Assembly: GCA_937138345.1 (NCBI GenBank)
Contig: CAKZOW010000117.1
Coordinates: forward strand, 1-37,571
Reading direction: 5' to 3'
Length of the DNA stretch: 37,571 bases
From: an uncultured archaeon
Lineage (GTDB): Archaea > Nanobdellota > Nanobdellia > Woesearchaeales > UBA583
How positions within the stretch are numbered: position 1 is the first letter of the stretch; every line of letters starts with the position of its first letter. The notes below the pieces were generated by a model. The model was given only the letters and a program-made list of their open reading frames with translations, made no database searches and was not told the origin of the DNA. Positions 23,751 through 25,478 of the stretch are shown here, piece by piece. A program made the translations under genes and the position numbers.

Positions 23751-23891
23751 CAGTTTTGTTAGCGTAAAGGCTTTTTATCCTCTACTTCTTACACTTCATA
23801 TTCGTGCAAGCTCGGCATACGTTTTCACCTACATCTTAATGTTTAGGTGCTGCGGACTCTTGGATGTTGATAAAAATCTTATCAAGTAAAG

Positions 23892-24503
23892 TTAATTCTT
23901 TACGATTATATTCCTAAGAGAATATCTGTCAACAGCTTTTCTTACAGCCTTATCAGAAACGTTAAGGATTTTTGCTATTTCTCTAAAAGAGAGATTTTTC
24001 TGTAATAAAAATTTTAACTGTTGCTCAGAAATTTTAGAATGCTTTGTAAGTTTATGAGATTTTTTTCTACAAGGTATTTTATTTAACTTTAAAATTTTAC
24101 CAATTGTAGAATGAGAAACATTACATAAATTTGCAATATCTCTTTGAGAAAACCCTTGTTTATACATAATTATCACAATAGGATGGCATAATTCTAAGGA
24201 TGGTTTTCTACTTTGAGTTCCACCTTTATTTAAATTATATCCTTTACTAAAAGAAGAGTATTTATTAATATAGTATTCTTCTTTTTCGTTTAAATTTTCT
24301 ATTGTGCATTTTTCTAAAATTTCATAAAAAAATTTGTCTTTACCATATTTTTTAATAGCTCTACTAATAGCCTGTTTCCTGTTACTTTTTAAACACTTTA
24401 AATGTTGTTTAAATCTAACCTCAACAGGTTGAATAGTCTGCCCAATATAAACTTTATTGTTTACACTATTTTTAATTATATAGATATATCCAAATTTTTT
24501 CAT
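23892..24503 (-). CDS. GIY-YIG homing endonuclease (intronic)
   Basis: FGYIYIIKNSVNNKVYIGQTIQPVEVRFKQHLK...ISRAIKKYGKDKFFYEILE; C-terminal HTH repeats. Confidence 0.85.
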   Translation of the reverse strand: MKKFGYIYIIKNSVNNKVYIGQTIQPVEVRFKQHLKCLKSNRKQAISRAIKKYGKDKFFYEILEKCTIENLNEKEEYYINKYSSFSKGYNLNKGGTQSRKPSLELCHPIVIIMYKQGFSQRDIANLCNVSHSTIGKILKLNKIPCRKKSHKLTKHSKISEQQLKFLLQKNLSFREIAKILNVSDKAVRKAVDRYSLRNIIVKN

Positions 24504-24582
24504 AATATTTTTTAGGTTTCACCATCTATGCTCTGCCCTTGAATAACCTGTTACAGTCATTCTTCAGTTCAAGTTAGGAATC

Positions 24583-25437
24583 TCACCCTCCTTGCTTAAT
24601 TCCGCAGTAATAATTCTTCAAGTTTCCTTGATGAACGGCAATTTTCTGGTATATTTCATATTTTCTATCTAAATGTATTGTAGAATCTTGGTATAAATAA
24701 TTTAAAATGTTTATTACTCGATGTCTTCCTCCTGTATTAAAACTATAAGAACATTGGTTCCTATGTCTGTCAAATAGTTTAGTATTAATATTAAATATTT
24801 TCTGAATATTTAATAACACATCTTTCGTACCTTTTAAAGCATATCTAAAGTCTAATAAATCTAGTCTAGGTTTTCCATTACGTTTGTTCAATTCTTTTTG
24901 TTTATAAGTATAAAGATTGAAAGAACCATCTCCATCTGTATAACCTCTTATGAAGTGTTTATGTAATTCTTCTTTCAAGTACTTAGGATAAGTCAAAATA
25001 CATGATTTTCTAGGTACAATACCTAAATCAGAAAACCTTTGGCTTAAAGACTTAGCACGGAAAGCTAATCTACATCTGTAGTAAGTTTTACCTTTACACT
25101 TTACAGGTTGTTTATCAACTATGTTTCCAGTATAATTAATAAACTTAGCAAACTTATGTAAATGTCCTGAATCAGTACTTTTTAAAGACAATTCAAATTC
25201 ACCACCATCTGATATATAACCATCCGCATAAATAAACCCTAACCAATAAGCATCCTCTTCTGTTTCTATGGTTTGGAACAAATCCTCCCTGACTCTCAGT
25301 AAATTTTGCTTATTTACTATTTCTATACCGTTTTCTCTAACTATCTTAGTAGCTTTCCATCTGCTAATATTTAAAGTATTTCCTATTTTTGTTAAGGAAA
25401 TACCATCTGCATACATTTTTAATATCTTTTCTTCCAT
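24583..25437 (-). CDS. LAGLIDADG homing endonuclease (intronic)
   Basis: AYWLGFIYADGYIS and HFIRGYTDGDGSF; N-terminal HTH. Confidence 0.85.
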   Translation of the reverse strand: MEEKILKMYADGISLTKIGNTLNISRWKATKIVRENGIEIVNKQNLLRVREDLFQTIETEEDAYWLGFIYADGYISDGGEFELSLKSTDSGHLHKFAKFINYTGNIVDKQPVKCKGKTYYRCRLAFRAKSLSQRFSDLGIVPRKSCILTYPKYLKEELHKHFIRGYTDGDGSFNLYTYKQKELNKRNGKPRLDLLDFRYALKGTKDVLLNIQKIFNINTKLFDRHRNQCSYSFNTGGRHRVINILNYLYQDSTIHLDRKYEIYQKIAVHQGNLKNYYCGIKQGG

Positions 25438-25478
25438 ACTATAAGGTATGAAAGAAATATGAATTATACAAATCTATT

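What the first reader, a model, noticed from the sequence alone, without database searches (positions are those of the whole stretch)
23751..25478. One helicase intron carrying two unrelated homing endonucleases, inserted inside Walker A
The SF2 helicase is split inside its P-loop. Exon 1 ends GTIQMATGLG and exon 2 begins KSFVLLRMIIQAL, so removing 23751-25478 restores ATGLGKS exactly. The 5' exon ends in T and the intron ends in G, as for group I introns. The intron holds a LAGLIDADG ORF (24583-25437) and a separate GIY-YIG ORF (23892-24503), with structured-looking sequence between and after them. Two endonuclease families in one intron is unusual. It could be a twintron, or a second endonuclease invading a peripheral loop. 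The core does not show the canonical AAGAUAUAGUCC string seen in the two polymerase introns, so the subgroup is open.
Basis: partly seen in the sequence, partly recalled or inferred. Interest (0 to 1): 0.85.

Follow-up and report, generated by a model that had tools for sequence, protein, structure and literature searches.

The report
Two-endonuclease group I intron in Walker A
A helicase gene of a crAss-like phage is interrupted, inside its ATP-binding loop, by one self-splicing RNA intron that carries two unrelated DNA-cutting homing enzymes; the intron belongs to a very common phage intron lineage that the standard RNA database (Rfam) does not recognise.

Summary
Removing 23751-25478 (- strand) joins GGT to AAATCC and restores ATGLGKS in register with six uninterrupted homologues. 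Rfam finds no core, but relatives do. The 3' 118 nt recur in 39 phage records and in more than 100 viral contigs. A 28-sequence alignment supports a complete group I fold with crossing P3 and P7 helices: 94% of cells paired, 35 pairs with two-sided changes. Models built without the window find its two core halves at E about 1e-18, one on each side of the GIY-YIG ORF. P7 is GCAUA/UAUGC instead of GACUA/UAGUC, which explains the missing AAGAUAUAGUCC. The intron is IA-like, with P7.1. The LAGLIDADG ORF lies in the P1 loop and runs into the guide sequence, P2, P3, P4 and P5. The GIY-YIG ORF lies in the P7.1 loop, where most relatives have about 20 nt. No second core exists, so it is not a twintron. 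It is the only one of 113 surveyed introns with both enzyme families. An exon-directed scan found relatives in Walker A codons of unrelated NTPases. Splicing and cleavage are untested.

The parts
25479..25598 (-). Helicase exon 1 (40 codons, ends ATGLG / GGU)
   Evidence: spliced translation aligns end to end with P0002-P0007
22485..23750 (-). Helicase exon 2 (starts KSFVLL; Helicase_C)
   Evidence: PF00271; homologues
23751..25478 (-). Group I intron, IA-like, 1728 nt, ends in omega-G
25476..25481 (-). P1 5' strand: exon GGU plus intron AAU (U.G at the splice site)
   Evidence: pairs with AUUGCC; covaries in relatives AAA/UUUGCC, AAG/CUUGCC, AAC/GUUGCC, AGA/UCUGCC
24583..25437 (-). LAGLIDADG homing endonuclease ORF (284 aa), in the P1 loop; its 3' end overlaps the guide sequence, P2, P3, P4 and P5
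24637..24642 (-). P1 3' strand (internal guide) AUUGCC
24614..24635 (-). P2 hairpin UUCAUCAAG-GAAA-CUUGAAGAA
   Evidence: read from sequence
24601..24607 (-). P3 5' strand CUGCGGA
   Evidence: 6 of 7 pairs covary
24570..24594 (-). P4-P5-P4' (CAAG-GA-GGG...UCC-UAA-CUUG)
24538..24567 (-). P6/P6a
24527..24533 (-). P7 5' strand GAGCAUA (bulged A)
24523..24526 (-). P7.1 5' strand GAUG
   Evidence: 4 of 4 pairs covary
23892..24503 (-). GIY-YIG homing endonuclease ORF (203 aa), in the P7.1 loop
23863..23866 (-). P7.1 3' strand CAUC
23850..23856 (-). P3 3' strand UCCGCAG
23826..23849 (-). P8 hairpin CACCU...AGGUG
   Evidence: 5 of 5 pairs covary
23814..23819 (-). P7 3' strand UAUGCC
23788..23810 (-). 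P9 hairpin CUUGCAC...GUGUAAG
23764..23785 (-). P9.1 hairpin GUAGAGG...CCUUUAC
23751..23763 (-). 3' end GCUAACAAAACUG with omega-G

Best explanation
A crAss-like phage SF2 helicase carries one group I intron (IA-like, divergent P7 GCAUA/UAUGC) in the GGU^AAA codons of its P-loop. After transcription, P1 pairs exon GGU and intron AAU with AUUGCC. The core P3-P9 forms around both ORFs and splices by the usual two guanosine-dependent transesterifications, restoring TGLGKS. The LAGLIDADG enzyme, in the P1 loop, probably cuts intron-less Walker A alleles so that repair copies the intron in. Its kin sit at the same codon in several unrelated NTPase genes, so it probably recognises P-loop coding DNA. 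The GIY-YIG enzyme invaded the P7.1 loop later and is either a passenger or a second mobility enzyme. Shown here: fold by covariation, exon register, intact motifs and loop positions. Inferred: splicing, cleavage and the order of invasion.
For: Covariation: 52 pairs, 94.4% of cells paired against 77.1% shuffled; 227 two-sided changes against 60.5; 0 of 500 shuffles as high; sliding a partner by 1-3 columns gives at most 44% paired. Held-out covariance models hit 23756-23863 (91.8 bits, 1.8e-18) and 24522-24635 (84.5 bits, 1.6e-18) in the right order. The 3' model also hits the window's Rfam-recognised polymerase intron at 28408-28501 (63.8 bits), which ties the family to canonical group I. P1 covaries across Walker A relatives. 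Intron-free homologues exist. Catalytic residues are intact. Most relatives have a short P7.1 loop there (107 of 110 introns where both strands could be located have under 800 nt and 104 have 150 nt or less). Kin of the LAGLIDADG ORF sit at Walker A in AAA+, RecD, Sak4-like, DnaB-like, Snf2-like and TerL genes.
Against: No splicing or cleavage data. P7 itself never varies within the alignment because the search was anchored on it; its support comes from comparison with canonical introns. No Rfam model recognises the core. LAGLIDADG kin also sit outside Walker A, and the Walker A label is clustered on their tree but not one clade.
Confidence: 0.9

Rival explanations
1. Twintron: the GIY-YIG ORF belongs to a second intron nested inside a LAGLIDADG-bearing group I intron, and two splicing events are needed.
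For: Two unrelated endonuclease ORFs in one insert; twintrons are known in fungal mitochondria (PMC4964425).
Against: One P3-P9 core only; one R2 hit and one significant R1 hit inside the intron. Fewer than 50 non-coding nt lie within P7.1 around the GIY-YIG ORF. The surrounding helix P7.1 (GAUG/CAUC) is continuous with relatives that have a ~20-nt loop there.
Confidence: 0.03
2. The intron is spliced, but one or both endonucleases no longer cut: the two ORFs are remnants of successive invasions and the intron is inherited vertically.
For: Homing endonucleases often decay after fixation (general knowledge). In PJN02 the endonuclease is annotated as two overlapping reading frames. The LAGLIDADG 3' end is constrained by the RNA it overlaps.
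Against: Both ORFs are full length with all catalytic residues conserved.
Confidence: 0.3
3. Not a working intron: the helicase is a broken gene with two endonucleases inserted.
For: No transcript data; no Rfam hit.
Against: Exact in-register restoration, intact exons 72% identical to an uninterrupted homologue, and strong compensatory covariation of the core.
Confidence: 0.03

Closest known systems
Phage group I introns of subgroup IA (T4 td/nrdB/nrdD, Twort; RF00028)
   Same: P1-P9 topology with crossing P3 and P7, bulged A and G-C in P7, P7.1 between P7 and P3, omega-G, U at the end of the 5' exon, endonuclease ORFs in peripheral loops.
   Different: P7 is GCAUA/UAUGC instead of GACUA/UAGUC; RF00028 does not detect it; two ORFs of different families.
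Hypomyces aurantius cox2-i1 (fungal mitochondrion, PMC4964425)
   Same: One group I intron encoding both a GIY-YIG and a LAGLIDADG endonuclease.
   Different: There it is a group IB intron whose GIY-YIG coding sequence is interrupted by the LAGLIDADG fragment; here both ORFs are intact and sit in two separate loops of an IA-like phage intron.
Intron in the ATPase gene of uncultured crAss-like phage cr6_1 (NC_055894)
   Same: Same ribozyme family, same Walker A site GGT^AAG, homologous LAGLIDADG ORF (36%), same P1 AUUGCC.
   Different: No GIY-YIG ORF; different host gene.
Walker A (P-loop) inteins, e.g. mycobacteriophage TerL1-a (PMC5050341)
   Same: Mobile elements with homing endonucleases targeting the P-loop coding sequence of NTPases.
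   Different: Spliced at protein level; here spliced at RNA level and one residue earlier (G^K, not K^T).
I-TevI (td intron endonuclease of T4)
   Same: GIY-YIG catalytic domain, 3.7e-7 to 1mk0.
   Different: C-terminal half has helix-turn-helix matches; different loop and host intron.

Membership tests
Group I introns | P3 and P7 crossing (pseudoknotted) helices around P4-P6 and P8 | tested here: met
   P3 6 of 7 pairs covary, crossing with P7; P4, P5, P6a, P8 covary
Group I introns | P1 with U.G at the 5' splice site and an internal guide sequence | tested here: met
   GGU|AAU with AUUGCC; covaries in relatives
Group I introns | Terminal G of the intron | tested here: met
   intron ends AACUG
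Group I introns | Guanosine-binding G-C pair and bulged base in P7 | tested here: met
   G-A-GCAUA / UAUGC-C fits; invariant in 28 sequences, but the set was selected on this string
Group I introns | Match to the Rfam RF00028 model | tested here: not met
   No hit in the intron, six phage relatives, ORF-less MissB1 or any tested intron of 18 contigs. A database limit rather than a defining feature; PMC11878797 reports that Rfam and GISSD miss phage variants
Group I introns | Self-splicing in vitro | not testable with these tools
   needs transcription and RT-PCR
Subgroup IA | P7.1 stem between P7 5' and P3 3' | tested here: met
   P7.1 4 of 4 pairs covary
Subgroup IA | Consensus R and S core strings (GUUCAACGACUA / AAGAUAUAGUC) | tested here: not met
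   GGGCAGAGCAUA and AAAACGUAUGCC instead; so 'IA-like' only
LAGLIDADG homing endonuclease | Two LAGLIDADG helices with catalytic acids | tested here: met
   WLGFIYADG and FIRGYTDGDG conserved; PF00961 above cutoff
GIY-YIG group I intron endonuclease | GIY-YIG catalytic residues Y, Y, R, H, E, N | tested here: met
   Y8, Y19, R30, H34, E75, N90 invariant; TIGR01453 above cutoff
Twintron | A second complete splicing core nested inside the first | tested here: not met
   only one core found

The most novel reading that the evidence does not exclude
A widespread, database-invisible IA-like group I intron lineage carries LAGLIDADG endonucleases that read the Walker A codons themselves, letting the element move between unrelated NTPase families. 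In this phage it has gained a second, GIY-YIG endonuclease in P7.1, giving one intron two independent homing specificities.
Probability: 0.4. Interest if true: 0.75.

Novelty: new variant of a known kind. Interest (0 to 1): 0.55.

Why it matters
It shows how one ribozyme tolerates two coding insertions in different loops, one overlapping its own guide and core, and gives a natural test of whether two endonucleases in one intron compete, cooperate or hitch-hike. It also exposes a blind spot: a common phage group I intron family is missed by Rfam, so intron counts and gene-integrity calls in phage genomes are too low. The Walker A bias suggests that RNA introns, like inteins, exploit the P-loop code as a target shared by unrelated genes.

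Tried and rejected
Rfam with relaxed thresholds on the intron gave only a chance snoRNA hit; on ORF-less MissB1 it gave only chance hits. Group II was not pursued: intron ends and topology fit group I and no Rfam hit arose. Twintron rejected: no second core. The search for related loci with the helicase found no viral relatives; homologues came from the protein search. The idea that the whole ribozyme family is confined to Walker A was rejected: only a few of the 98 introns taken without exon selection fit that site (2 by the automatic test, which needs a perfect 6-nt P1 and a complete 5' exon; several more have K-S/T 3' exons). The bias belongs to the endonuclease/exon subset. A strict Walker A clade of LAGLIDADG proteins was not found (6 label changes against 10.5 shuffled; L145 and L069, counted there as 'other', are themselves in P-loops on inspection). 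An attempt to extract 5' half-references by regex failed and was replaced by coordinates derived from A1. Apparent GIY-YIG hits in some LAGLIDADG ORFs look like cross-hits of the helix-turn-helix domains.

Full report
OBSERVATION. On the - strand the helicase reads MSKLDPKKRIVLL...GTIQMATGLG (25598-25479), is interrupted by 25478-23751, and continues KSFVLLRMIIQAL... (23750-22485). Six uninterrupted homologues (P0002-P0007, 72 to 31% identity; P0002 is 461 aa) pass through the same P-loop without a break. The two ORFs in the insert are a LAGLIDADG protein (PF00961) and a GIY-YIG protein (PF01541; TIGR01453 group I intron endonuclease above its cutoff; I-TevI catalytic domain 1mk0, E 3.7e-7). 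Residues expected for catalysis are invariant or nearly so in homologue alignments. The proteins occur on 4-5 contigs each.

FINDING THE CORE. Rfam finds two RF00028 introns in the window's polymerase region but none here, even at relaxed thresholds. A distant blastn search showed that the last ~118 nt (23746-23863) recur in 39 phage records, in introns of terminase, RecD-like helicase, DNA polymerase, tape measure and other genes. Rfam detects none of these introns in six phage relatives, in ORF-less MissB1 alone, or in 18 contigs; its one hit there, in L087, is a different intron.

STRUCTURE. I read the fold by hand from relatives and then tested it. On 28 sequences (window spliced of its GIY-YIG ORF, alignment A1) the 52 named pairs are 94.4% paired. 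35 pairs have two-sided changes, with 227 such cells against 60.5 shuffled, and no shuffle of 500 reaches any of the five measures. Sliding a partner by 1-3 columns drops pairing to 33-44%. P3, P4, P5, P6a, P7.1, P8, P9 and P9.1 all covary; P3 and P7 cross, the group I pseudoknot. RNAalifold independently returned P4, P5, P6/P6a, P9 and P9.1 when the half-models were built. Models built without the window found its halves at 23756-23863 (1.8e-18) and 24522-24635 (1.6e-18). The 3' model also matches the RF00028-positive polymerase intron at 28408-28501 (63.8 bits), which links the family to canonical group I. Caveat: P7 is invariant in the alignment because sequences were chosen by that string. 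Its support is the match in position and form (bulged A, G-C pair) to canonical P7, with ACUA/UAGU replaced by CAUA/UAUG. Introns L111, L114 and L115 combine canonical P4/J6-7 strings with the GCAUA P7.

P1 AND ORF POSITIONS. P1 is exon GGU plus intron AAU paired with AUUGCC (24642-24637), which lies downstream of most of the LAGLIDADG ORF, so that ORF sits in the P1 loop. The pairing covaries at other Walker A introns: AAA/UUUGCC in PJN02, AAG/CUUGCC in L139, AAC/GUUGCC in L145, AGA/UCUGCC in L151 and L154. The last 60 nt of the LAGLIDADG ORF encode the guide, P2, P3 5', P4 5' and the 5' strand of P5; the stop codon falls in the P5 loop. The GIY-YIG ORF sits between P7 5' and P3 3', in the P7.1 loop. 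Of the 110 introns in which both P7 strands were located, only six have more than 150 nt between them: the window (707), L051 (1093), L141 (927), L062 (784), L148 (296) and L140 (191). L051 and L141 have LAGLIDADG ORFs in this loop instead, L062 carries an ORF in or near it, and L140 and L148 have no ORF there. IMEP5 carries its only endonuclease, a GIY-YIG, in another place (before P4'). Loops are therefore interchangeable landing sites.

HOW UNUSUAL. Of 113 distinct introns located by their 3' motif, 80 with at least 1.6 kb upstream, the window's is the only one with clear matches to both endonuclease profiles (4.8e-68 and 5.5e-82). HNH enzymes were not profiled. In the literature library, one fungal group IB intron encodes GIY-YIG and LAGLIDADG together (PMC4964425), and a 2025 database paper calls multiple endonucleases in one group I intron previously unreported (PMC11835236). 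I found no phage case, but subscription papers are not held.

WALKER A. A scan for this intron end followed by Lys-Ser/Thr codons gave 17 contigs. The pattern asks for the codons after the intron, not for the glycines before it. In at least eleven of the 17 the 5' exon ends in a P-loop glycine of an NTPase: AAA+, SF2 and Snf2-like helicases, RecD-like, Sak4-like, DnaB-like and TerL (family names of these host genes are my reading of the exon sequences). The closest viral LAGLIDADG relative, L127 (42%), sits at NPGMG|KST in an intron with canonical P7, so endonuclease and ribozyme have been exchanged. The ribozyme family as a whole is not restricted to Walker A, and the endonuclease tree shows clustering but not one clade. 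Target recognition of the P-loop code is inference.

SETTING. The window lies on a 127.9-kb contig. Its DnaB-like protein matches only crAss-like and Bacteroides phages among the listed records, at 21-24% identity, so this is a distant crAss-like phage. Dense group I introns in such phages are known (PMC7886860), as is the weakness of Rfam and GISSD for phage introns (PMC11878797). The individual ingredients are known; the combination and the family are a new variant of a known kind.

Noticed in passing
window 28408-28660 and 26702-27937: The two polymerase introns also match the 3' model of this family (63.8 and 37.5 bits), and each has a LAGLIDADG ORF nearby (28637-29536, 26762-27832), in different loops.
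   Followed up: partly
window 9512-10399 (+): A GIY-YIG endonuclease on the opposite strand, 24% identical to the intron-borne one, next to an ORF of unknown family (8828-9499).
   Followed up: partly
window 23905-23932 (-): A perfect TTGACA-16-TATAAT string at the end of the GIY-YIG ORF; may be chance and no function is implied.
   Followed up: no
window 1841-2848 (-): RNA ligase gene (phrog_548).
   Followed up: no
L051 and L131: In-frame TAG codons in intron endonuclease ORFs suggest phages that read TAG as an amino acid.
   Followed up: no
P0009 (3.4-kb contig): LAGLIDADG protein 92% identical to the window's over its N-terminal part, then a different C-terminal end: possible recombinant or frameshift.
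   Followed up: no
L141, L145, L150: Apparently ORF-less 250-310-nt introns of this family at Walker A of SF2-like helicases or other NTPases; good minimal substrates for splicing tests.
   Followed up: partly
L129-L131, Goe21 (L155): LAGLIDADG introns of this or a closely related family in phage DNA gyrase subunit A genes, with P7 variant CAACGCAUA/UAUGC in L129-L131.
   Followed up: partly
G000:C42 and G000:C74: Further introns of this family on other contigs of the same assembly, with GIY-YIG or LAGLIDADG ORFs nearby; C42 interrupts a P-loop NTPase gene.
   Followed up: partly
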